This document shows positions 820-43,005 of a stretch of DNA of 64,000 nt, piece by piece. The notes beneath the pieces are model-generated. The model did no database searches and had not been told where the DNA came from. It was given only the letters and a program-made list of their open reading frames with translations. Origin of the DNA: Alitta virens (taxonomy: Eukaryota; Annelida; Polychaeta; Phyllodocida; Nereididae); the NCBI GenBank assembly GCA_932294295.1, contig OW028574.1, positions 51,644,797-51,708,796 on the forward strand. The letters are read 5' to 3'. Positions within the stretch are counted from its first letter, which is position 1. Each line of letters begins with the position of its first letter. A program made the position numbers and the translations under genes.

Positions 820-3800
820 ATGTTACGGCTGCAGAGTCGGGTGGGCCAGCTGGCCGAGTCCTTCCAATGGGTCCAGCGTCAAGCCACCAGGGCTCCTGCT
901 CAACTCCAGTGTCTCTCGACCCCTCATGTCTATGTCCAGGTGTGTGGGAAGAGCACTGCGCCATCCACTTTCGTACCAAACCAGATGGAGCACAAACCTA
1001 TCAAGAAGCTTCTTGTGGCCAACAGAGGTATGATAATGTTCAATTTAGCTTAATTCGAATGCAATATAACCTTCATCATGTAATTATTCAATAAAGATGT
1101 TCAAATGAAATCAATCATTCTTAACTCATCTAAGTAACTATTTTAAATGCTACCTGTGAATTTGTCTTCTTTTACTTGAAAGTAAGAATAAGAACTCTTG
1201 AAAAACTGCTATATTTGCACTTTTGCAGAATCAAATGTGTTGTAGTCACAATGTAGTGATAAGTACTGATTTCACGCTTTATTTCAGCTATGTACTGTTA
1301 AGATATTGTGTGTCCCATTTTTTCATATTTTTGTCTTGCATTGTTGGGTACACTGGAGGATCCATATTCCCTTAGCATTTACTATACCTTCGTTATCATA
1401 TACCCTTCCCTGTATGAAACATTTTTGCAGGTGAAATTGCAATCCGGGTGTTTAGGGCATGTACAGAGATGGACATCAGAACCGTCAGCATTTATTCGCA
1501 CCAGGATATGATGCAAATGCATCGGTTAAAGGCTGACGAGTCTTACCAAATAGGCATAGGTCTCCCTCCTGTCGCTGCGTACTTGAACATCCCGGAAATT
1601 ATCCATGTGGCCCTGGTGAGTATAGGATGTGAACCATGGATGAATTCTCTACCGCTGCCATCATTTATATCTTCTTGTTTTTTTCTTGTTTATGTTGGGT
1701 GCATGTTTTTGCAAGGGATGTCTTGCTTTGAAAAGTGTTTGTCCATGTCACAATTTTCATGACACTGCAATAATGAAAGCAGTTTTGTTGCAAAAGTTAT
1801 TAATACAATTTATGTTGGTTTTTGATGCCACTTGATTTGGAATCTTTATTCTTGTTTGCTGAGCATTCATATTTGAATTTTTTTATTATTATTTTTGGAA
1901 ATTTTGTTTGAGAAACCGTCATTCCTCCTGTGAAATGGTGCATAATCTTTGATGTTAATTTTGCACAATTGTATAACTTGAAACTTGCAACAAAACCAGT
2001 TTTTCATTCGTTATGTGCTTCATAACATTTTGCTTAGCAGCACATCACATGGCTTTACTGATACTTCAACTTTCAGGCCTCTGATTTCATTTGTTTCAAA
2101 ATGGCAGAATCTCATCTTCCCCTCATTTCTTGTTTCTTTTTCTGTTAACATCAGTTGCGTCGGCTCTATTTACCCATTTAATGAACCCATTTCAGGCGAG
2201 ATTGCCATCAGGGTGTTCAGGGCTTGTAATGAGATGAGCATTCGCTCAGTGGCTGTCTACTCTGAGCAGGATACCATGCAGATGCACAGACTCAAAGCCG
2301 ACGAGTCTTATTTGATCGGCCAAGCTCTTCCTCCCGTGGCGGCATATCTTAACATTCCTCAGATTATACAAGTGGCGCTGGTGAGCCATGATAGACTCAA
2401 GAAAGTTAATGGCTTGTACTTGCACGGCTGTGGTTAATTCAAATGAATAAGATTTTGCTATCAAATTAGCCACGAGCACTTGAATTTTTTGCCCAAACCA
2501 GGTGTATATATATATGTAGTACAAGTTGATACATCCGTAAAATTCAAGCGCTCGTGAAATTAGCCATATACATTAAGTACCTAACAAGAAGTACTACAGT
2601 TACTTAACTCAGAAATCAACATCCATACCTTAGCAGAATCAAATCTTACATAAAGACCTCATAACCAAATAGCATTAAATGGAGTTGGTATCAAACTAGC
2701 TTTATACATTAAGCACCCAACCAACATTAATGCAGTTACTGAACTCAGCAAGCAGCATCCATACCTTGGCAGAGTCATATCTTACATAAAGACATCTTTT
2801 ATCAAATAGCATTAAGAATGATGTCTAGTGCTTCATTTCTATGAATTCATGATGAAGCTGCAATTTACAGACACACCTGCATCCACCCTCAGCATATAAG
2901 CTATGCTCTAGCGATGGTTGGATTTGGTGCATTGCTAGTTCATTGTAGTAAATCACCAATTTGTGAGAGTACATTGGTGCACCTAGTAATGGGGAGGTCG
3001 TCTCAGACCCTCCAAATATTCGTATAGATGAACAACGGAGCATATTTAGTATAAATTCGAAATTAATTAAAATTAATATAAATTCAGAAGTAATTTAATT
3101 ATATACGATATATGATTAAAGTATAAATTTCAACCTACTTTTGGTCGAAGTCTACACAGACCCAGCTTTAAGAACGTATGTTGAAAAAATGTGGTTTCAC
3201 AAAATTACTAGTGGGCATTCTTATAATGGGTTATTGTTTGGCCATTGCCATATTTATGCTCTATAAGCTAAAAATTACATGTGTAAATCTGTATGTTCTT
3301 GTTTGAATTATACATATTTATGTTATCCCTATATTGCTATTCGCAATCCTGGACAACAAAACAACACAACACAATCTCTCTTCCCTGTTATTTACCTGTA
3401 TGTATCATATTTAAGCTCTTTCTGCCTCTATCTTTTCACAATATCCTTTTTGTTCAATTCGTTGTTTCTCCTTTAATTAAGTTGCTTACCTAATTTGCTA
3501 TCTTTCTTTGTTGGTACGAGCACTTTGCATGTAATGTCATTGTGTAAAGTTAGTCAAATGTACACTAATATTATCTTACCATATACATGAATTAAAATGC
3601 TCTGCATAATTAAAAAAAAGAGGAGATTAGTGTAGTGATATACAAAGAAAATGTACACATAAATACATATCTTTTGCTTGGTGAATCAAGTTAGTTTGTA
3701 ATGATTGCAGGAAAATGATGTGGATGCCATCCATCCTGGTTATGGCTTTTTGTCTGAGAGGTCTGACTTTGCTCAGGCTGTGATTGATGCGGGCATCAAT

Positions 3801-6800
3801 TTTATTGGACCGAAACCAGAAGCCATGCTGCGGATGGGTGACAAGGTCATGGCTAGGGAAGCTGCCATTGAAGCAGGTAAGAAAAAGGTCAATTCCTCTG
3901 GTAAAGCTGCAGAACTGATGACAGTTGTCTGGTTTCCTTTTGCTCATTTATTGCTTGTATTGGTTTGACCTTATTTTGTGTAGTAGACATAAAAGTGTCA
4001 ATTATGATAATAGAATAATAATGGTATGTATTAGTTATATCCCGAATTGGAGGGAGTTAACCAACAAAAATATTGAACGATATAAGTAACTTATACTCCA
4101 TCAGACATATTTACTAATTTTGATTGATTGTTTGTGTGTTAATGCCTTTATTATGCAAAACAAGTTCAGTTTGCACTCGGGACAGAGTTAACTAACATTT
4201 TCATTGGTTATTGCCCACTCAGAACAATAGGAAAACAGTCTTAAGAGCAGTCCCATAATAGCTTTTATTCTGGCAAAAATGAAATAACTTGACAGTCTTT
4301 ATTGATGTTTTTTTTTATAAAGTTCAAAACAATTTGACACAACTCGTGCTTCTTATGTGCACAATTTAGAGAACAAACTGACCTACTGTACATTTTCAGT
4401 GTTTTTAAAGAAAATTCTCGACATTTGATTAAAATATTTAATCATTGTTTAAATTTTTTACTTATTCTTCAGGAGTGCAAGTTGTACCAGGAAGTCCTGG
4501 ACCAGTGACGTCAGCCGAGGACGCATTGCTGTTTTGTGAGCAATATGGTCTGCCGGTCATCTTCAAAGCTGCGTATGGAGGCGGAGGCAGGGGGATGAGG
4601 AAAGTGACGAGGATGGAGGTAATAAATTGATGCAGCTAATTTATTTGAAGGAATGCATGTTAGACTCTGTTTGGAATCATGTACAATCTTGATTAATTTT
4701 CTGATGTAGGATGTAGCCGAAAATTATGAGAGAGCAACATCAGAGGCATTGTCTGCCTTTGGAAATGGAGATGTGTTTTTGGAAAAATTCATCGAAAGAC
4801 CGCGACATATAGAAGTTCAGATTTTAGGCAAGTATTGCATCTGTTTCTGTTTATCACATGAAGAAAATCTCCATCGTTATATCCAGAATCAATGTTAGGA
4901 TTTCTATTTAGATACCTGTGCTGATAATGTTCCTGGCTTATTGAAGTCCTTAAATCTTTCCAGGTGACAAATACAACAATGTGGTCCATTTGTATGAGAG
5001 AGACTGCTCTGTCCAAAGACGTCACCAGAAAGTGGTAGAAGTGGCGCCTGCCCCAGCCCTTACTCAAGACATTCGTGATGCTATGACTAGAGACGCTGTC
5101 CGACTTGCTAAACATGTAGGATATGAGAATGCAGGAACTGTGGAGTTCTTGTTGGATGAGAGTGGAAAGTACTTCTTTATTGAAGTCAACGCTCGTCTGC
5201 AGGTAGAACACACAGTCACTGAAGAAATTACTGGGTATGTTGAAAGTCTGCATAATTTACTTGTTCTTAGAATGGCTGGTACAGTTCCCCACAGTTGCGA
5301 AGATTTGCAATTTTTCTAAGGGGGGATGAAACCTCTTATAGAGCCTCAAAATCGTTAAAAATGTATCTTTTAATATCGTTCAATGTACTTACCAAAGACG
5401 ATTTCATTGGTTTGTGAATATAAAAAACACTGCATTAAACACAGCTTCTTTTTGTTGGAAGGAATTTCATGACCAATTGATTTGTGTTCTTTTAGAATCG
5501 ATTTAGTGACATCTCAGATCAGAATTGCTGAAGGAAAATCCCTGGGAGAACTTGGCCTTGTACAACATAACATATTTCCGCAGGGATATGCAATCCAGTG
5601 CCGAATGACCACTGAGGACCCTGCAAAGAATTTCCAGCCGGACACTGGCAAAATTGAGGTAATTTGGTGAATTAATTGTGTTAACTGCATGTTTTTACGC
5701 TTAATTAAATGCTTCTGAACCATTTAGGAGTTTTACATGTATGTATAGATTGTTTTCGATATGGTACATACACAAGGTTGACAATACACAGGATTATTTT
5801 AGTTTCTTGGATGCATTTCTGTGGTGCTCGAAAGTAGTACTCAAAGTAAAGCTGCAATAAATGGGAAGGTTAAAACAACATTATCCACCATTGTTCTCTA
5901 TTCGTTTCGATCTTCTGAAATAAAAGGTTTTTTTAACTGACATCTTTTTGACATTACGACTATTCAGAATTAACTATGCAAGGAAAGGAAAGAGTCATTA
6001 CAGCTTTTTCTCCCACTTTCAGAGTAGTGGTAAAGTGTGTCCAATATCTTATTATTTATTTTAGGTGTTTAGAAGTGGAGAGGGTATGGGTATCAGATTG
6101 GACAGTGCATCAGCCTTCCAAGGAGCCATCATCTCACCCTATTATGACTCCCTCCTCGTGAAGATCATTGCTCATGCCAGCACACACGAAAAAGCTTGTG
6201 CTAAGATGGTGCGAGCCCTGAAGGAATTCCGTATCAGAGGTGTAAAGGTAGGTTCCTCTACTAGGTTGAATTTGGATTATTGCAGTTCTTCAAGGCAAGG
6301 GTTTTGCTTTTAATGATGATTGATTGATGGGAGATTTCTTGATGTCCATGCCATATCACACACATATACCTTGTGTGGTATCTGCCGTTTCCCTCAGCAA
6401 AGACACAGAGTACAATGTGCTGCCAATTTCATGTTATTGATTAATGTGCTGCCAATTTAATGTTATAGATTAATGTATATCTACACCATGCAAACTAATA
6501 AGTAGTTATATAGAACTGACGATTAGTGTGGTGTTCTCAAGTGAAAATTGTGATTTCAGACTAACATTCCATTTTTGCTCAACGTGCTGTCACATCCCAA
6601 GTTCCGTTCTGGAATGGTGGACACATACTTCATTGACGAGAACCCCAACTTGTTCCGATTTCAAGGCACTTTGAACAGAGCGCAGAAGTTGCTTTATTAT
6701 TTAGGAACATTGATGGTTAATGGTCCACAGACTCCCCTTGCTACGGGACAAGCCCCTACTCGCATTACTCCTACTGTGCCAGCTATACCTTACAGTGAGT

Positions 6801-9800
6801 ATCGGTTGACCTTTTTAATTGCTACTCTGTAGATGAGAGTGTGTGCTGTAGATGAGAGTGTGTGATTGTACATTGTGTGAATAGTAACATGTGTCTAATT
6901 CTAAGGTACCTGCAGTGATCACCTTTTCCATATTTTCTTGTCTGAAATAGCATGATTAGATAAATTTAGAGTAAATAAGTTTTATCGTCTTGTGTCATCT
7001 CATTACTTCCCGTCATATCACCTGTAATTGCAAGGATAATATCGTTCATCACTGTATTTTTGCTAAAAGGTGCCTGTTTGGCATAAATGAGGACCATCAT
7101 CATAAACTTCATGGTCCATGTTAATACTAATTTCTGTGTGCATTCATATTTGACAAATATTTCTCGAAGTGTGAAGAAACACTTTCATGCCCTTTGCAAT
7201 TTTGAAGCTATGAACTAATTGTATTGAGCATGGCATGCTAGGTTTTTTGCTGTGTGGTTGTTTAGAAGAATAATAATCTTTGTATTTACGAACACAGAAA
7301 GTCTTTGGCATAAGTCTTTGAATAAGTTTATGAAAAGCGCAAGATTCCTGAAACTAATTTTGTGAAATGTGTAGTCTATAACCTCAGAGCATTCATTCCT
7401 GATACGATTTTCCTTTTAAACCTGAAGTTGAAGAGAGTGATGAATCTGATGATGAGTTGGAAAGTAAGTTACTTACAGCGAACTCTCCTTTGATCTTAAC
7501 CATATTTTTGCAAAATTCATCATCGATATTGCTTTATTGGTAAAATATATGTGCATGTGTGCATTGTACTTGCAGCTTCAATTTGTGCACAGTGTTCGTA
7601 CCGATTAAAACGGCTTTATACTGCTTCTAAATTCCTACACTGTATCTGAATATTGTCCCATATTTGCTCTCTCAAAGATATCTTGAGTTGCTGACACCTA
7701 AGTTTGCACTGAAACTAAATGTTATCACCAAGGCTTGTTGAATGTCCTCAACTGGACCAATGGCAGTTGATTGGCTTATAATCCTCCTGACACTTGCTTG
7801 ACAATACATGTATAACCTTTCCAGCATCTTGCATTAGATATTCTATTGTGAGCCAATTTTCACTGTATTTCACTGGTTCGACATTGTGACTTATACTTAT
7901 ACATGTGTGTACTTATGAACTAAACTTTGAAGACCACACATGCATGGTAACAGGCTTATATAAATTAAATGACCTTTCCTGGCCGTGTTGGATATTGTCA
8001 AAAATATGTGACCTGTATTACAAGAGGAGCCTTCTGAAGTCCATGTTGAAGTTAAAGATCCCGGTCATCCAGATTAATTGTGCTTTAGGTCACCCCCAGA
8101 CTGTTGCTTGTTGGCGAGTCCATTGATTTATGTCCTATAAACTAAATATAATATTGTACAACATGTTTCATAAGTTTAATTGTTTGTAGATTGTGTGTTT
8201 TGCTTTTCAGCTTGTAGTTTTTACCCTACCTTGTAATTCAACGACCATCAATGAGGGTCAAGTTCAATTAAATTTTTGCAAACTATCCCAGTAGCACGCA
8301 TGCACTAAAGCAAGAGGCAATTTGTTTTGCAGACGCTGAGAAAATGTCACCTGGTAAGAAGCATTGACTAAAGCTAAGAGTAAAGTTTACATCTTGATGG
8401 GTAAATTAGACTTATAGAATCTAAACAGGCTGCCGAGCTATACTAATTAACTCATCAAGGTGCTGTAATTTTAAAAGCTTTATTTGCTTTTATTTGGCTT
8501 TTTTGTTAAAGATTACCTCATCGGCACATTAGTAGTATGCACCTGTAGTCACCACAATTCACTTTATTAGCTTATTTCAAACATCATATATACTTTGGCT
8601 TAGTGGGCGGTTTGGTGTTGACTTTCATCATGGGTCTTGTTTCATGAGTAGCTGAGGGAGTTTTCTCTTTTGCGACCACCCTCACGTTTTTTAAATGAAA
8701 GAAGGTCTGGGATGTTGATAGTTTTCAAACTTCATTTTAATTAAGTCAGTATTTAATGTCTCATCTGTCAGTGGTTGTCAAAGGTTTATTATTTGTTTTC
8801 TAAATTGTCATTATCTTAGCATGTTATACTACTGTTAAGATTGTTTTCATCATCCTAAGATCTATCGAGTTTCATAAGCATACAAAATCACAGTTCAATG
8901 ACGGACTGTTATGAATTTCAAATGCAAGTAACCTGATGCAAATAATGTCTTGTAACAACTTTTATGACTGATGCCAATTTGTTTCAATGAATTGTTTAGC
9001 TCCAAAATAGTGTGATATCACTTATTTACTGTCAGGAAACAATTTGTGATGTATGCTTATGACAAATAGGAATATTATAGATGTTGTGAACTTGAAACAT
9101 ATCAGTGATCTTTGTTGCATCCCTTCAAAGTACTGGAGGGTGAGTACTTTAATATAATACGGTAACTCCGAAGAATTATTTGCCAATATTTATATATATA
9201 TATATATATATTTCAGCTGTTCCCTGCCTCTAAACCTGAATGGTTGTTGTTTTCATACCTATTATGGTCGTTTATAAAAAGATTAAAAAAAATTCAAAGC
9301 ATGTCCAAGTAATTTTGTTAATCTGCTATGCCTGAAAAATTAGTTATAGTTTTTTTTTTGGTTTTTTTTTCAGTTTATTAACAAGATGTTGATTAATATC
9401 AGTGTTGTCTGTTTTGTGTTTTATTTGTATTAAAATCTATTTACCTCTCCTGCTTATTTAAATTCAGTGATTCAATTAATAGCAGAAAGAAATATTAAAA
9501 TTTATGGTTTCACTACTAAAGTCTATTATAACAGTATGAAGTAGTGCATTAGGTAGTGTGGTTCATGTCTCTTTAATATTTCTGATCATTGAGTTCATTT
9601 ATGTACATATTTCTTGCGCATGATATGTTATGTAAGACCAAAATATATCAATAGTTAGGCAATTTCATTTGACAGTCATTACGTCAAGAATTCTTCCAAC
9701 TGGTTGATGTGCATGGTACTAGTGGATCCTTAAGATATTGTGATTAAATAGTTGGGGGAAAAGATATTGATGATTTATTTGTGTGGCATTTGTATTATAA

Positions 9801-12800
9801 GAAACTATTCCTACAGTACCTATTTCTATAAGTTTGTAACTACAAGTTTCAAAGTTATTGCTTGTTACTTATTGTCTGCTGGGTATGTTTTCTTGATAAT
9901 GATATATTGAACAATGTTATGAAACTCATTAATCCTATATGCTGTTACTATTTGGATGGTAACTTCCACGTTGTGGTGCAATACAGTTAAAACTTAAGAA
10001 AACTGTGAGAGCTGGAGTTGTGTGTAGAGAAATGGAGATGAAGCTGTGAAAATCTTTTTATCCTAAATTACATTAAACCCACTACAGTCTCAAAGTATGC
10101 AATGGTTCACTGAAAGCCTAATTTTATTTCTATTGCATGTTTGGGAAGTTTGAGCTGTGCAATGCTGAATAATTGTAGGGCATTCAACTTATCTGTGGGG
10201 AAACTGGAATCCTTGTGTGATGTTAAAGAAACAGAATGTGCAGAATCGGTGTTATGGATCAGGAGTGGTTCAGTTTATTCATTTGCATCTTGTGCTCATA
10301 GATTTTCTCTTCATTGCAGCACCGAAGCCTCCTCAAGGATGGAAGGACATCTTGAACGACAGAGGACCCGAAGGTTTTGCCAAAGCAATGCGTGAACACA
10401 AAGGACTTCTTCTAACGGACACCACTTTCCGAGATGCTCACCAGTCCTTGCTCGCCACAAGAGTCAGAACACACGACTTGAAGCGTATTGCGCCATTTGT
10501 GTCTCACAATTTCAGTGGGCTTGTCAGTTTGGAAAACTGGGGAGGTGCGTCTGTGAATTTTTGTCAGAGATTTAACTTTGTACATATCCTTTGTGATGTC
10601 TATCTCGGTGTTGAAAAGTGTTGATTGAGCAGTCATTGGCCTGATTTTTACAGATTTTAAAGATTGTCACATGTGTTTGAGCTTATACTGCCTCATATAG
10701 AGTTAAATGATCACTATCTATGACCAACGTTGTTATTTTGAGAATTAAGGGGATTTCACCACAAATATTATAACTGTCGCATGGTTTTACTGATTTATAT
10801 CTTATGAATAGCTGCTTTGACGCAATGTTTTAATGTTAATGATTGCATTTCAGGTGCTACATTTGATGTTGCCATGAGGTTTCTACACGAGGACCCCTGG
10901 GAACGTCTCGAGATTCTCAGGCGCCTGGTTCCAAACATTCCATTCCAAATGCTCTTGAGAGGAGCTAACGCTGTGGGTTACACCAGCTACCCTGACAATG
11001 TTGTTTACAAGTGAGTTGATCAATTAAGTTCTCTAATAAGGCTAGGAACTTTCTCAGCCAAGTCTGTTCATTTGCTGTCATAAATATACCTTTATGGCAA
11101 CTTCCCTCAATTGAAGCAACAAACTCTCAGCCCAATAAAAATAGTTATTTGACACTTCATATAACTCTGGAGGGGAGTGGCGGATTAATATCTGTTCAAA
11201 ATGAATAGTTAAAAAAATGCTGTTTATATAAAGAAGAAGTTTACTTGTCACATTGTGTTGTTTGATAGTCAATTTCCTAATTTCCTGTCATTTCTAGATT
11301 TTGTGAACAAGCAGTGAAATCAGGCATGGACATTTTCCGAGTATTTGACTCTCTCAACTACATGCCCAACATGATCCTTGGAATGGAAGCTGTTGGCAAA
11401 GCAGGAGGAGTGATCGAAGCAGCCATTTGTTATTCTGGAGATGTGTCTAACCCAGCAAAGACCAAGTACAACCTCGACTACTATGTCAAACTGGCCGATG
11501 AGCTCGTCAAGGGTGGCACTCATATACTTGGCATCAAGGTATGAATATCATGTGTGTGTTACGTAATTGGTGGAGTTGATGATTCAATGTGGCATGTATT
11601 GACTTCTTGTCGGAACACTGCATAGATGTAAATGTTTCATAGATAAATATTAATGAATTTTACTGACATGTAGAGGTCACAAACGACCTATATGTCAAGG
11701 GTGGAACTCATATATTTGGCAAATGGGCAAATGACCAGTTTGTCATAATCAGCAATAATATTTGATATAAAAAACAACCACAAGATCGACTGGTGCTTCT
11801 CTCACGCCCATGGTGATCTAAACCACAATATTGGTAAAAATGGTATCAATTATAATGTGACAGTGGGATTGGTTGACAATGGTGTTCAACATGGGTCTAC
11901 ATTGAAAGTCAAGTCAAGAAGTCCCAAATTCTCCATGTTGGGCAATGAAAAGTAGCATACAATGGGGTGCCCTTAGTGTTAAAAGATATTGGCTTCGGCT
12001 CCATTGGTGTCACATTCTGTTTTGTATACTTATTACAACGTGTTATATTGTTTGATGTAGGACATGGCGGGGCTCCTTAAACCCCAGGCAGCAAAGATAT
12101 TAGTGGGTGAATTGAGACAACGACATCCCGACATCCCCATCCATGTCCACACTCATGACACTGCTGGTGCTGGAGTCGCAGCGATGCTGGCGGCTGCAGA
12201 GGCAGGTGCTGATGCTGTGGATGTTGCCGTGGACTCCATGTCAGGCCTGACATCCCAACCAAGCATGGGAGCAGTGGTGGCTGGTCTGGAGAGAACTGAG
12301 AAGGACACAGGTTAGAATACAACAACATCTCTAATTGGATTAATGGATGTCAAAATATAACGAAAGGACAATTGTTATCACTGTCAATGGACAGGGTGAC
12401 ACTTATAACAAAGGAATAAGAGTTCATAGTGTGCCGTTAAACTGTTGAACTGCCTGAGGGTTATGCAAGTCCCTTTCAGTCTTATCATAGACACAACTAT
12501 GATCTTATATTCTTTGCTTCATTGATGAATCCTATTTGTAATTCACAATCTATAAGCATTGTTCAACATAAGTAATCATTATTGCAAAATGGATAACACA
12601 CTCTTTCTTAGTATGGTGTTAACTGCATAGGTATTTTTTGTTATCATCAGTAAATTAATGTTCTAACATATATGTAATGTTTGTTTCTCACTTTCAGGCT
12701 TCACACTTGGACCAATCAATGCATATTCGGCATATTGGGAACAAGCCAGACAACTCTATGCTCCTTTTGAGTGCTGCACAACCATGAAGTCTGGAAATTC

Positions 12801-15800
12801 TGACATCTATGAAAATGAAATCCCTGGTAAATACCTAAATTTCTCAATGAAAATAATTTACTGTGCATATCTTCGGTTTCTCTTTTAAATGCTAAGTATA
12901 CTTTGATTTTCATCATTAATAGGTGGTCAGTACACCAACCTGCAATTCCAAGCCTTCAGTCTTGGTCTCGCTGATCAATTTGAAGATGTCAAGAAGAGGT
13001 ACAAGGAGGCCAATAAGTTGTTGGGTGATATTATTAAGGTATGCATAAGTTGATCATGTTCTGTTTACACTTCGCTATCAGATATTTACCCAGACATTTT
13101 GCTGAAAAATGAACATGAGGAGTGCATAGGCCTGAATAACCAAGAACTAACTCTTTAATTGCTATTAATTTGAACTTTGAATGTTGATCCAATCAGCATT
13201 TTATTGTAATCACTCCCTGTATTCTCTGTGTTTGACTAAAGACTAATACTTGATACACCTGGACATTCATTCACAACTATTTACAAATTTTCTTTTGCGT
13301 TTGTAGGTAACCCCTTCATCGAAGGTTGTGGGTGACCTTGCCCAATTCATGGTGCAAAATAAAATCACAGGAGAGACCTTGGAAGACCGGGCTGAGGAGC
13401 TCTCCTTCCCCCAGTCTGTGGTGGAGTACATGCAAGGATACCTGGGAGAGCCACCTGGTGGATTCCCTGAACCGTTGCGATCTATGGTGGGTAACTTGTA
13501 ATAGCCCGTCATTTGACAAATAAAAAATATTGTGGCAGTAGAAGGTTTTACTGTGATTTAACAGTGTCAAGCTGATATTATTAGGGGTAACCAACGACAC
13601 CTACATAGTTTTTTTTGGTTATTTGGTAATACAGATTTACAATATAAATCATTAAATTTTGTTGATTTGCAGATCTTAAAAGGTGCTCCAATAGTTGAAG
13701 GTCGTCCTGGTGAATCTCTTTCTCCTTTTGATTTTGCTGCCAAGAAAGAAGAGTTGACAGAGAGACATGGTCCGTTTATTAACGACAAGGATGTTCTCAG
13801 CTCTGCTCTTTATCCAAAAGTGTTTGATGATTACCAAGACTTCAGAGGTAAATTTGGACCTGTGGATAAGATCGATACTCCCAATTTCCTTGTTGGACCT
13901 GACATAGCTGATGAAATCACCGTAAGTTATGAGTAGTTTACAATATTACATTATTATATCTTCTGGGCCAAAACACAAAGCGAAAATCTGCATCCTCCTA
14001 CATAACATATTTTATGTAAGGTGCCATTAAAGTTAGATATAAGCTGTGTGGACTCCTGATTTTCACTTAATAATTAATTTTTATATAAACCAGACCAATT
14101 TAGGAGGATTAAAAATCTGAATCTTTGACTGAATCTATCACTCAATCAGTTAGTGAATTTTAACTGCTTTTCACGAAAAATACTGTAATATGATATCGTC
14201 CAGAGATGTTGCAATATGTCTTTTAGTAGTATTTGTACATGATCTTTATTGTTTTATTCAGGTTGAATTAGAAAAAGGCAAGAACTTGCACATCAAGGTT
14301 TTGGCCAAGAGTGAGAAATTGAGCGCCCTGGGAGAGCGAGAAGTTTTCTTTGAACTGAATGGACAGCTGAGAACTATTCTCATTCGTGACCTGGAGGCTG
14401 CTAAAGTAAGCATGATGAACCAAGTACAAAAAAGGTCTCAAAATGTCGAGCAAACTGTGCAACAAATTATTTTATGTGATAATTATCCATTTAATAGCCA
14501 ACCCATTGGATAATTGTGACAACACCACAGCAGATAAATCTGCACCAGCATCTCCAATATGAACAAATTATTTAAGCGGTAGAAACTTATTCTTGTTCCA
14601 TAATAATATTATGCATGTGGGAATATGTTACAGTTGGTTCATTTAAGGGTCATTCCACAGAAACTGCACTTTTGGCATTTCAAGTAAAAAAAAATGAAAT
14701 TTTCAATCTTTCAAAAATTCATCCAAATTATGAATTTTAATACATTTCAGTGTTGTAACATGACAACAAAACATTTTTCATCTTTTATATTTAAATTGGT
14801 TGGTCATGTGACCTGTTAAGTCCGCTATTATGGTAACAGGAAGGACTAACAGGGTTGACATTTAGGGAAACTTTATGCAATATCTGAAAGGGAAATGCAG
14901 GTCATATTACCGAAGTTTCCACTCCATTTTGTAATATAGCGCTTTCAGAATTGCTTTTAAGCAATTTTCTGTGATAAATAGCTTCCTTATAATCTTGGTA
15001 ACAGGAGTGAAGCGCATAAAAGTCACCCCCAGCAAATAAAAACTCTTTTTCCTTTAATATTGAAAAATATTATTCGAAATGTGTAAGATAAGCAGAAATC
15101 CTGAAGTCATATCAGTGCTTTCATCTCTTGAAAAGTGCACAAACCTAACAATTTTGTGTTTCATTTAGCAGCATTTTAATACCATGATAACAGGAGTGAC
15201 ATTGATTCTGTGGAACACTTTAACATATGGGTAATGTTACTGGAACTGCAAATATTTCACAATTTTATTCGCCAGTTGAAAAATTGACTTCTCCTTATTG
15301 TAATTTTAACTTACATTCATTGAGTAGGATGAAAAGATATATAAAATAAGGTATGGGACATGCCCTTTTTGCTGCCTTTTACAGCAAAAAGAGCCAAAAT
15401 ATCAGTTATGACAGACTCCTGCAAACATTTCTTGTATTTATATCCTAACATTGGTCTGCCCATCCTCATACCACATTAATATTAGTAAAACCATTTTGCA
15501 TGTTATAATCACATTTGAAAGTTAAGGGACAGACGGGTGCAACGTTTCTGTGGAATGACCCATAAAGTGCTTACTTCTGCTAGTTGTTCATATTAAAATG
15601 ACCATGATGACTCATGATCCCATGTAATAATGACTCAGCTTATGGACCTGAATTGCAAGTTTGTCAAAATTGTGAATGCCATTGCAGTGGACGTAGGGAT
15701 ACGGTTCACAGGACTTGCTTTTCATGTAATCATGACTGCAACCAGCCAAATCCTCATGGCCAAGCAGCTGGAGATTGAGTTATGACACCTGCCTGGGTGT

Positions 15801-16445
15801 GTATAATGGAACAGATAGGATCATGAATCATGACAGCCAATTTTCATATGAATAATAAGCATTTATGTGATCCCACTGTAATGACCTTTGTGAATGGTGT
15901 CGATGTACTTAGCTCATATGATGTTAGTCTCAAAAGTGTTCTCACTTGGTTGGTATTATTTTATGACTGCATTGACTTTTGTAAAAATTATTAATGTTGA
16001 TCAGTGTTTGAAATAAGGGGTTTCCGGTTGTCCGAAACAACCAAAATAAGCACCGTACAACCAAAATTGTTTAGGATTTTTTTTTGGCAAGTATATAAGT
16101 TATACAGTTAACCCCTTGTTTTGAAAACTGTTGATTATTAAGGTATTGATATTTTCAAGTAGATATTAAGGTTTAATTTTTTTATTAAATTTTCAGGAGC
16201 TTCATTTCCACCCGAAAGCCCTGAAGGGAGTAAAAGGATCCATTGGTGCTCCGATGCCCGGAGAAATCCTTGAAGTTAGGGTGAAAGAAGGTGACGTGGT
16301 AGAGAAGGGTCAGCCCCTGGTCATCATGAGTGCCATGAAAATGGAGATGGTGGTGCAGGCGCCAGTCGCAGGTGTCATCAAGAAAGTCAGTGCTGAGAAA
16401 GGACAGAAGTTGGAGGGAGATGATTTACTGCTTGAAATTGAGTAA
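820..16445 (+). CDS. PC: Pyruvate carboxylase, mitochondrial (19 coding exons)
   Basis: Biotin enzyme converting pyruvate, bicarbonate and ATP to oxaloacetate in the mitochondrial matrix. Coding exons: 820-1027, 1431-1615 (2A) or 2196-2380 (2B), 3711-3876, 4473-4618, 4710-4827, 4964-5234, 5496-5658, 6065-6247, 6560-6794, 10320-10544, 10854-11010, 11298-11538, 12061-12310, 12698-12826, 12923-13038, 13307-13486, 13673-13921, 14262-14405, 16197-16445. Phases agree throughout and sum to 3615 nt, or 1204 residues (the vertebrate enzyme is about 1180). Residues 1-60 are Arg-rich and basic, like a matrix targeting peptide. Biotin carboxylase covers about 60-510 ([34 protein letters not shown]). Carboxyltransferase covers about 570-840 ([10 protein letters not shown], the lysine of [11 protein letters not shown] at 766 that is carbamylated in the family, metal ligands in HTHD at 796-799). 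The biotinyl domain has AMKM with Lys1170. Family assignment is certain; the exact start and UTRs are inferred. Confidence 0.97.
1431..1615 (+). other. PC: Pyruvate carboxylase coding exon 2A (alternative to 2B)
   Basis: A 185-nt exon between a good acceptor (TTTTTGCAG) and donor (GTGAGT). It enters in phase 1 and leaves in phase 0, and encodes residues 70-131 of the biotin-carboxylase N-terminal subdomain ([16 protein letters not shown] through IPEIIHVAL). It differs from 2B at 12 of 62 residues, including SHQDM versus SEQDT and YQIGIG versus YLIGQA. Versions with SEQDT and YLIG look more like the vertebrate enzyme, so 2A appears to be the derived copy. Confidence 0.9.
2196..2380 (+). other. 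PC: Pyruvate carboxylase coding exon 2B (alternative to 2A)
   Basis: Second 185-nt version of the same exon, 580 nt downstream of 2A, with acceptor CATTTCAG and donor GTGAGC and the same phases. It encodes [16 protein letters not shown] through IPQIIQVAL. Splicing 2A to 2B would put 2B out of frame and reach TGA at its 14th codon. Skipping both makes exon 1 run into GGA AAA TGA at the start of exon 3. Only one copy at a time gives a full-length enzyme. Confidence 0.92.
2471..2556. repeat. Hairpin with an 18-bp stem, 90 nt after exon 2B
   Basis: CACGAGCACTTGAATTTT at 2471-2488 is the reverse complement, with one mismatch, of the sequence at 2539-2556. The loop is 50 nt. In the pre-mRNA this could fold into a stable stem close to the donor of exon 2B. 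Confidence 0.75.
2561..2818. repeat. Tandem duplication, about 136-bp unit, in the intron after exon 2B
   Basis: Two diverged direct copies, 2561-2696 and 2697 to about 2818. Shared landmarks are ATACATTAAG near the start, CATCCATACCTT in the middle, and TCTTACATAAAGAC followed by AAATAGCATTAA near the end. It is non-coding. Confidence 0.75.
4828..4963 (+). other. PC: GC-AG intron between pyruvate carboxylase exons 5 and 6
   Basis: Exon 5 ends ATTTTAG and the intron begins GCAAGT, not GT. The acceptor is TTTCCAG. Only this junction restores the conserved EVQILGDKYNN reading with the right phase. GC-AG introns with the AG|GCAAGT context are a known minor class of U2-type introns. Confidence 0.85.
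7428..7463 (+). other. PC: Candidate 36-nt cassette microexon of pyruvate carboxylase
   Basis: A 36-nt segment preceded by CCTTTTAAACCTGAAG and followed by a consensus donor GTAAGTT. The flanking exons meet in phase 1, so 36 nt keeps the frame. Spliced after exon 9 it adds the acidic peptide [12 protein letters not shown] to the interdomain linker. The acceptor has a modest pyrimidine tract. It is supported by phase, donor and coding-like composition, not by homology. Confidence 0.5.
8333..8353 (+). other. PC: Candidate 21-nt cassette microexon of pyruvate carboxylase
   Basis: A 21-nt segment between a strong acceptor (TTTGTTTTGCAG) and a strong donor (GTAAGAAG). It keeps phase 1-1 and would add seven residues (NAEKMSP or close, depending on the junction) before the [12 protein letters not shown] or [12 protein letters not shown] start of exon 10. 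It can be joined in frame with or without the 36-nt candidate at 7428. Confidence 0.5.
11655..11728 (+). pseudogene. Decayed duplicate of the 3' end of pyruvate carboxylase exon 12
   Basis: In the intron after exon 12, the segment around 11693-11720 repeats about 28 nt of the exon end (GTCAAGGGTGG.ACTCATATA.TTGGCA) with two mismatches. Weaker similarity extends upstream. The donor side is not conserved (CAAATGGG replaces ATCAAGGTATG) and gaps break the frame, so it cannot act as an exon now. It is read as an eroded exon duplication. Confidence 0.6.
14647..15561. mobile_element. Inverted-repeat element of 915 bp (TTAA-type MITE) in pyruvate carboxylase intron 18
   Basis: The ends are inverted copies of GGGTCATTCCACAGAAAC, followed by a shared GCAC. 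It is bordered on the left by TTAA and on the right by ATAA, which could be a TTAA target duplication with one change, as used by piggyBac- and Kolobok-type transposons. No ORF is seen inside. Internally a motif close to GGTAACAGGAGTGA recurs at about 14832, 14999 and 15187. The superfamily assignment is inferred only from the possible TTAA flank. Confidence 0.7.

Positions 16446-22912: not shown

Positions 22913-43005
<20,093 letters not shown>

What the first reader, a model, noticed from the sequence alone, without database searches (positions are those of the whole stretch)
1431..2380. Frame-enforced mutually exclusive exons in pyruvate carboxylase
Two tandem exons, each 185 nt with identical phases (1 in, 0 out), encode alternative versions of residues 70-131 of the biotin-carboxylase domain (50 of 62 residues identical). 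Using both reaches a stop at the 14th codon of 2B; using neither reaches a stop at the third codon after the junction. The cell must therefore choose one, and mis-splicing is flagged for decay. Differences cluster at SHQDM/SEQDT and YQIGIG/YLIGQA, on a subdomain near the ATP site and dimer interface, which hints at isoforms with different kinetics or regulation. I do not know whether this has been reported.
Basis: partly seen in the sequence, partly recalled or inferred. Interest (0 to 1): 0.8.

Follow-up and report, generated by a model that had tools for sequence, protein, structure and literature searches.

The report
Two swappable exons in pyruvate carboxylase
In what is most likely an annelid worm, the gene for pyruvate carboxylase, a key mitochondrial enzyme, carries two versions of one exon, of which only one at a time leaves the gene readable, so the animal probably makes two slightly different forms of the enzyme; splicing and function remain to be shown.

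Summary
The + strand carries a complete, intact pyruvate carboxylase (PC) gene (start 820, stop 16445, 19 coding exons per transcript, 1204 aa) with two tandem alternatives for coding exon 2: 2A (1431-1615) and 2B (2196-2380). Both are 185 nt, phase 1 in and 0 out, with AG/GT borders, and encode residues 70-131 (50 of 62 identical). Using both, or neither, gives an early stop. The copies are old (127 of 185 bases identical, synonymous sites saturated, flanking introns unrelated), and both stay under protein-level selection: 12 amino-acid changes against at least 26 in 5000 neutral simulations. An assembly duplicate or dead relic is therefore unlikely. A tree places the gene with annelids. Mutually exclusive tandem exons are a known kind; I saw no report of them in PC in the limited searches made. 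Isoforms with different kinetics remain untested: exon 2 lies in the N-terminal biotin-carboxylase subdomain, outside the ATP and bicarbonate residues listed for a bacterial PC. No exclusion mechanism was detected, one intron pair being hardly tested; frame plus transcript decay would suffice. Both copies lack the Lys/Arg at residue 112 that 261 of 293 homologues have. No RNA evidence was available.

The parts
820..1027 (+). coding exon 1 (ATG at 820; 208 nt, leaves in phase 1); N-terminal 69 residues plus first base of Gly70
   Evidence: a Lamellibrachia PC fragment (P0191) begins with the same MLRLQSRVG
1431..1615 (+). alternative exon 2A, 185 nt, phase 1/0, residues 70-131 (SHQDM, YQIGIG type)
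   Evidence: Pfam Biotin_carb_N 147.7 bits together with flanking exons
1616..2195 (+). 580-nt stretch between 2A and 2B (an intron of its own only if both were used)
   Evidence: only 10-18-base matches to the introns on the other sides
2196..2380 (+). alternative exon 2B, 185 nt, phase 1/0, residues 70-131 (SEQDT, YLIGQA type)
   Evidence: Pfam Biotin_carb_N 150.6 bits together with flanking exons
3711..3876 (+). coding exon 3, common acceptor for 2A and 2B
4473..16445 (+). remaining 16 coding exons of PC: 4473-4618, 4710-4827, 4964-5234, 5496-5658, 6065-6247, 6560-6794, 10320-10544, 10854-11010, 11298-11538, 12061-12310, 12698-12826, 12923-13038, 13307-13486, 13673-13921, 14262-14405, 16197-16445 (stop)
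   Evidence: TIGR01235 pyruvate carboxylase 1860.5 bits over 63-1204 for the 2B isoform
7428..7463 (+). candidate optional 36-nt micro-exon (IEESDESDDELE) in the linker after the biotin-carboxylase domain; not part of the 2A/2B choice
   Evidence: in frame, AG/GTAAGT, at the site where isoform pairs of other animals differ
8333..8353 (+). candidate optional 21-nt micro-exon (NAEKMSP) at the same linker site; may be chance
   Evidence: in frame, GCAG/GTAAGA; no homologue shown

Best explanation
This is an ancient tandem duplication of one internal exon of an annelid pyruvate carboxylase gene whose two copies are now used as alternatives. Each mature mRNA carries either 2A or 2B, giving two full-length PC isoforms that differ at 12 positions in the N-terminal subdomain of the biotin-carboxylase domain. 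Because each exon is 185 nt (3n+2), double inclusion or skipping shifts the frame and meets a stop within 3 to 14 codons, so only single inclusion gives enzyme and wrong products are probably destroyed by nonsense-mediated decay. Shown from sequence: gene, exons, phases, stops, constraint on both copies. Inferred: that both are spliced in vivo, that decay acts on the errors, and that the isoforms differ modestly in activity, stability or regulation.
For: Equal length, equal phases, intact splice borders and open frame in both copies. Either copy completes a 1204-aa frame; the 2B isoform passes the TIGR01235 cut-off (2A whole not scanned), and both exons in context give about the same Biotin_carb_N score. 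The 57 nucleotide changes in the 61 complete codons fall 13/7/37 by codon position and change 12 amino acids; 5000 neutral simulations gave a mean of 35.2 and a minimum of 26, 81% with a stop. NG86 dN is 0.16, dS not computable (saturated). Mean identity to 12 annelid-type PCs is 0.805 for 2A and 0.792 for 2B, against 0.849 among those PCs, so both are conserved and neither is decaying. Residues odd for an animal in 2A, His93 and Gln109, occur together in one bacterial-type PC fragment (P0291), so they need not spoil the enzyme. Outcomes for both and neither exon.
Against: No RNA evidence of any junction. None of the 12 annelid-type PCs is 2A-like or 2B-like at residues 112/113 (12 of 12 have Lys-Gly), so the pair was not confirmed in a relative; the collection is clustered at 90% identity and would hide isoforms of one species. 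Both copies are a little less conserved than any of those 12 (lowest row mean 0.823). No RNA pairing beyond shuffles in two intron pairs; no motif excess that survives.
Confidence: 0.88

Rival explanations
1. One copy is used almost always; the other is a poison or decoy exon whose occasional inclusion together with the first lowers PC level through decay (regulation of amount, not of kind).
For: Double inclusion gives a stop at codon 14 of 2B. Frame-shifting exons are known to serve this way (general knowledge).
Against: A pure decoy would not need to keep its protein sequence, yet both copies keep about 0.8 identity to annelid-type PCs and have saturated synonymous changes.
Confidence: 0.06
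2. One exon is a recently silenced relic that has not yet decayed.
For: Several residues in each copy are rare among the 293 homologues held: His93 (3), Gln109 (3), Ile112 (0) in 2A; Gln112 (3), Ala113 (0), Gln125 (5) in 2B; the three with His93 look bacterial. Both copies have drifted a little more than single-copy relatives.
Against: No stop, frame shift or broken splice border in either copy; the rare residues are shared evenly between the copies.
Confidence: 0.05
3. The second exon is an assembly artefact such as an unmerged haplotype or a misjoin.
For: None found.
Against: Only 127 of 185 bases identical, with unrelated introns; the locus lies deep inside contig 2 of a 671-Mb assembly in 23 contigs.
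Confidence: 0.01

Closest known systems
coq-2 exons 6a/6e (nematodes, flatworms, annelids, molluscs; PMC7434440, passages read)
   Same: Two exons of a mitochondrial metabolic enzyme used mutually exclusively; annelids are among the lineages reported.
   Different: There one exon swap changes substrate choice and was tested by exon deletion; here no functional difference is known and the residues lie outside the named ATP contacts.
Alternative oxidase exon 10 duplicates of the oyster Crassostrea virginica (PMC5589949, abstract and outline read)
   Same: Tandem exon duplication in a mitochondrial enzyme; one copy with novel residues; both expressed.
   Different: Last exon, with RNA evidence of a shift under air exposure; here an internal exon, both copies somewhat derived, no RNA evidence.
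OGDH exons 4a/4b of mammals (PMC7969005, start of abstract in listings only)
   Same: Mutually exclusive exons in a mitochondrial carbon-metabolism enzyme.
   Different: Exclusivity there is reported to rest on distant branch points; here the AG-free stretches before the acceptors are 55 nt (2A) and 41 nt (2B), no sign of a distant branch point.
PKM exons 9/10 (PMC3498831, start of abstract in listing only)
   Same: Two alternative exons of one enzyme of pyruvate metabolism.
   Different: Another enzyme and fold (recalled), with its own splicing regulators.
PC linker isoforms of insects and Aplysia (database rows)
   Same: Alternative forms of PC itself.
   Different: They add or drop a short stretch after the biotin-carboxylase domain; they do not exchange a domain segment.

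Membership tests
mutually exclusive tandem duplicated exons | adjacent homologous exons in one gene | tested here: met
   tblastn E = 4e-26; starts 765 bp apart, same strand, no other exon between
mutually exclusive tandem duplicated exons | same length and same phases so that one can replace the other | tested here: met
   185 nt each, phase 1/0
mutually exclusive tandem duplicated exons | intact splice borders and open frame in both | tested here: met
mutually exclusive tandem duplicated exons | transcripts hold one and only one copy | not testable with these tools
   no RNA data; only the frame argument
mutually exclusive tandem duplicated exons | an exclusion mechanism (steric, RNA pairing, distant branch point, U2/U12 mismatch) | tested here: inconclusive
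   580-nt spacing and GTGAG donors; best pairing I1-I2 reached by 15 of 20 shuffles, I2-I3 by 9 of 20; I1-I3 (-30.2) beat its one shuffle (-27.5), i.e. not really tested
pyruvate carboxylase | full domain set over the curated cut-off | tested here: met
   TIGR01235 1860.5 bits against cut-off 1114.45, residues 63-1204 (2B isoform; the whole 2A isoform was not scanned)
pyruvate carboxylase | either exon completes the Biotin_carb_N domain | tested here: met
   147.7 and 150.6 bits, cut-off 25.5
coq-2-like switch of enzyme chemistry | the swapped segment changes substrate or active-site residues | tested here: inconclusive
   residues named as ATP, Mg, bicarbonate or biotin contacts in Lactococcus PC lie at 116-341, outside the stretch matching exon 2; no assay

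The most novel reading that the evidence does not exclude
The exon switch retunes the first half-reaction of PC between two metabolic states, for example aerobic anaplerosis and low-oxygen metabolism, as a splice switch parallel to those of coq-2 and alternative oxidase in worms and molluscs. Both copies have lost the Lys/Arg at residue 112 that nearly all other PCs keep, and they replace it differently (Ile-Gly in 2A, Gln-Ala in 2B), so this loop would be the tuned site.
Probability: 0.12. Interest if true: 0.75.

Novelty: new member of a known kind. Interest (0 to 1): 0.5.

Why it matters
PC decides whether pyruvate enters central metabolism as oxaloacetate. It is usually described as one enzyme tuned by acetyl-CoA (recalled). 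A kept choice between two versions of part of its biotin-carboxylase domain would be a second, splice-level control, and the two natural variants, differing at only 12 sites, would be a ready-made pair for asking what that subdomain does. In the literature searches made (open-licence papers only, listings mostly) I saw no report of it; two searches showed only the first 15 of 1502 and of 107 papers, so absence is weakly supported.

Tried and rejected
Structure: an AlphaFold model of an annelid-type PC fragment (P0065) had pLDDT under 50 at residues 95-121 (93-119 in window numbering), the loops of interest, so it was not used. The S. aureus PC-CoA paper is not held.

A TCTT (PTB-like) excess in the 580-nt stretch looked real against the window average (10 against 3.1, one of 27 motif-region pairs counted) but was reached by 39 of 500 shuffles of the same stretch; the intron after 2B had 19 of 500 and the one before 2A 173 of 500; dropped.

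Age of the duplication: a tree of the 62 residues puts both copies with annelid-type PCs (90/79, not starred) and cannot say whether they are sisters (p-AU 0.325).

Relatives: three protein searches scored 7997, 5306 and 7997 candidates and listed 120 each, 293 different proteins. None of the 293 has Ile at 112 or Ala at 113. The third was aimed at short fragments of transcripts broken at this exon; its best row is 86% identical, so none is from this species or a near one.

Micro-exon coordinates were one base off and in notebook entry 1, corrected. The first gene model had one exon one base short, corrected.

Full report
WHAT IS THERE. The + strand from 820 to 16445 encodes a complete pyruvate carboxylase. 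Nineteen coding exons per transcript, with AG acceptors and GT donors at every internal border except one GC donor at 4828, join into one open frame of 1204 residues whichever of the two second exons is used. The 2B isoform scores 1860.5 bits on TIGR01235 (cut-off 1114.45) over residues 63-1204. Exon 2A is 1431-1615 and exon 2B 2196-2380; each is 185 nt, phase 1 in and 0 out, with the same residue at 50 of 62 places. Both included gives a stop at the 14th codon after the junction; neither gives Gly-Lys-stop.

IS IT MORE THAN CHANCE OR A RELIC. tblastn of the two isoforms over the whole window finds a full second copy of exon 2 only (E = 4e-26 and 1.3e-25 in the two directions). One other trace exists: 26 of 28 bases of the end of exon 11298-11538 recur at 11694-11721 in the next intron, too short to be an exon. 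2A and 2B share 127 of 185 bases. In the 61 complete codons there are 57 nucleotide changes, 13, 7 and 37 at codon positions 1, 2 and 3, and 12 amino-acid changes. Mutating 2A at random with the same number of changes gave 35.2 amino-acid changes on average, 26 at the least, and a stop in 81% of 5000 runs. NG86 dN is 0.16 and dS could not be computed, as expected at saturation. The introns around the two exons show only 10-18-base matches to each other. So the duplication is old and both copies have been held to the protein sequence. That speaks strongly against an assembly duplicate and makes a relic or a pure decoy unlikely.

WHOSE GENE. The organism is therefore most likely an annelid. Owenia, also an annelid, fell outside this group, with Lingula. 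The window lies in contig 2 of a 671-Mb assembly of 23 contigs. That one answered genome search gave 8 biotin-carboxylase matches: one is this gene; five on contig 1 match PC at 28-53% and look like acetyl-CoA carboxylase (motif recalled); two on contig 7 gave no PC match. A full search for other PC copies did not complete.

WHAT DIFFERS BETWEEN THE COPIES. Twelve residues: 81, 84, 87, 89, 90, 93, 96, 109, 112, 113, 125, 128. I compared them with all 293 proteins that the three searches listed (unweighted, chosen by my own queries, with redundancy and bacteria among them). 2A has His at 93 (3 of 293, all three bacterial-looking; Glu in 227), Gln at 109 (3 of 293) and Ile at 112 (0 of 293). 2B has Gln at 112 (3 of 293), Ala at 113 (0 of 293; Gly in 276) and Gln at 125 (5 of 293). 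One bacterial-type fragment, P0291, has both His93 and Gln109. Lys or Arg at 112 is found in 261 of 293 and Lys in 12 of 12 annelid-type PCs; neither copy in the window has it. Those 12 are Paralvinella, Capitella, the nine unnamed rows of the tree group and P0065, an unnamed fragment placed only by the short exon tree; the Lamellibrachia fragment P0191, left out of this count, also has Lys, and Owenia (P0085), left out too, has Lys. Mean identity to the 12 is 0.805 for 2A and 0.792 for 2B, against 0.849 among the 12 (lowest row mean 0.823), while the next segment (132-275) of the window's protein is as conserved as usual (0.774 against 0.758). Both copies have thus drifted a little faster than their single-copy relatives, as expected of copies that share or divide a role, though mild relaxation of one cannot be excluded by this alone. 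Neither is clearly the original: each keeps some consensus residues that the other lost.

WHERE IN THE ENZYME. Exon 2 covers the N-terminal subdomain of the biotin-carboxylase domain (Pfam Biotin_carb_N 147.7 and 150.6 bits). In the Lactococcus PC cryo-EM paper (PMC9581989; sections 6 and 10 and passages read) the residues named for ATP, Mg, bicarbonate and biotin run from Lys116 to Arg341. By the end points of the match to 5vyw in the table (no residue alignment seen) exon 2 corresponds to roughly residues 10-77 there, so none of them is exchanged. Residues that I recall as dimer contacts in E. coli biotin carboxylase (Arg16, Arg19, Glu23; recalled, no call) are identical in both copies. That argues for tuning rather than a change of chemistry. 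A structure prediction was too poor in these loops to add anything.

HOW IT MOST LIKELY WORKS. One exon per mRNA, with the frame as the safeguard. I looked for a mechanism of exclusion: the exons are 580 nt apart, too far for steric exclusion (general knowledge); donors are ordinary GTGAG; AG-free stretches before the acceptors are 55 and 41 nt, so no distant branch point is indicated; intron-intron pairing was no better than shuffles for the two pairs tested with 20 shuffles each (15 of 20 and 9 of 20 as good), while the pair of the first and last intron beat its only shuffle and stays open; motif excesses shrank against shuffles of the same introns. Trans-acting regulators, or imperfect splicing cleaned up by decay, remain possible. 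All statements about splicing in the living animal are inference.

COMPARISON WITH KNOWN SYSTEMS. Works like: mutually exclusive tandem duplicated exons. Member: each sequence-level anatomy feature tested is met; the exclusion mechanism is inconclusive; the RNA-level feature could not be tested. Enzyme examples closest in setting are coq-2 (PMC7434440, passages; mutually exclusive exons in nematodes, flatworms, annelids and molluscs that switch quinone synthesis) and oyster alternative oxidase (PMC5589949, abstract; duplicated exon whose variant takes over under air exposure). Literature: PC with mutually exclusive exon gave 4 papers, none on this by title and abstract start (in one, PMC8659336, passages were read, and concern coq-2); PC, alternative splicing and mollus* gave 3. 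One search listed 15 of 1502 papers, only 3 of them holding PC; one search listed 15 of 107, none holding PC. The library holds open-licence papers only, so absence of a report is weakly supported.

SIDE FINDING. Intron 6795-10319 holds two candidate micro-exons, 7428-7463 (36 nt) and 8333-8353 (21 nt), both keeping the frame. The first would add IEESDESDDELE at the place where protein pairs of one species differ by a short insert, acidic in several, in 5 of the 6 pairs aligned (Belonocnema, Periplaneta, Rhynocoris, Condylostylus, Aplysia; the Spinachia pair does not differ there), and where several annelid-type PCs carry acidic serine-rich stretches. Of 15 AG...GTRAG pairs of 9-50 nt in that intron, 5 keep the frame open, so the second micro-exon could be chance; the first is supported by position and composition.

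VERDICT. A real, well-preserved pair of alternative exons in what is most likely an annelid PC gene, a new member of a known kind, with the functional meaning open. Interest 0.5: surprising enough in so central an enzyme to merit RNA and enzyme tests, but without evidence yet that the two forms behave differently.

Noticed in passing
window 7428-7463: Candidate 36-nt micro-exon (acidic IEESDESDDELE) at the linker site where PC protein pairs of insects and Aplysia differ.
   Followed up: partly
window 8333-8353: Candidate 21-nt in-frame micro-exon (NAEKMSP) at the same linker site; could be chance.
   Followed up: partly
window 11694-11721: 28-nt stretch, 26 bases identical to the end of PC exon 11298-11538, in the intron just after it: perhaps a scrap of another local exon duplication.
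   Followed up: partly
window 4828-4829: GC instead of GT donor after PC exon 4710-4827 (GC-AG intron).
   Followed up: no
window 2557-2660 and 2693-2796: Two 104-nt direct repeats, 82% alike, 136 apart, in the intron after exon 2B.
   Followed up: no
window 22913-23549, - strand: Exons of a small GTPase next to PC, reading like Rab4 (name recalled from motifs, no family search answered; ORFs).
   Followed up: no
L004-L008 (own genome, contig 1, 51488597-51558171, - strand): Five closely similar loci, three of the four spacings 16.6-16.7 kb and one 19.4 kb, that look like acetyl-CoA carboxylase by motif (recalled); a tandem gene array or an assembly repeat.
   Followed up: partly
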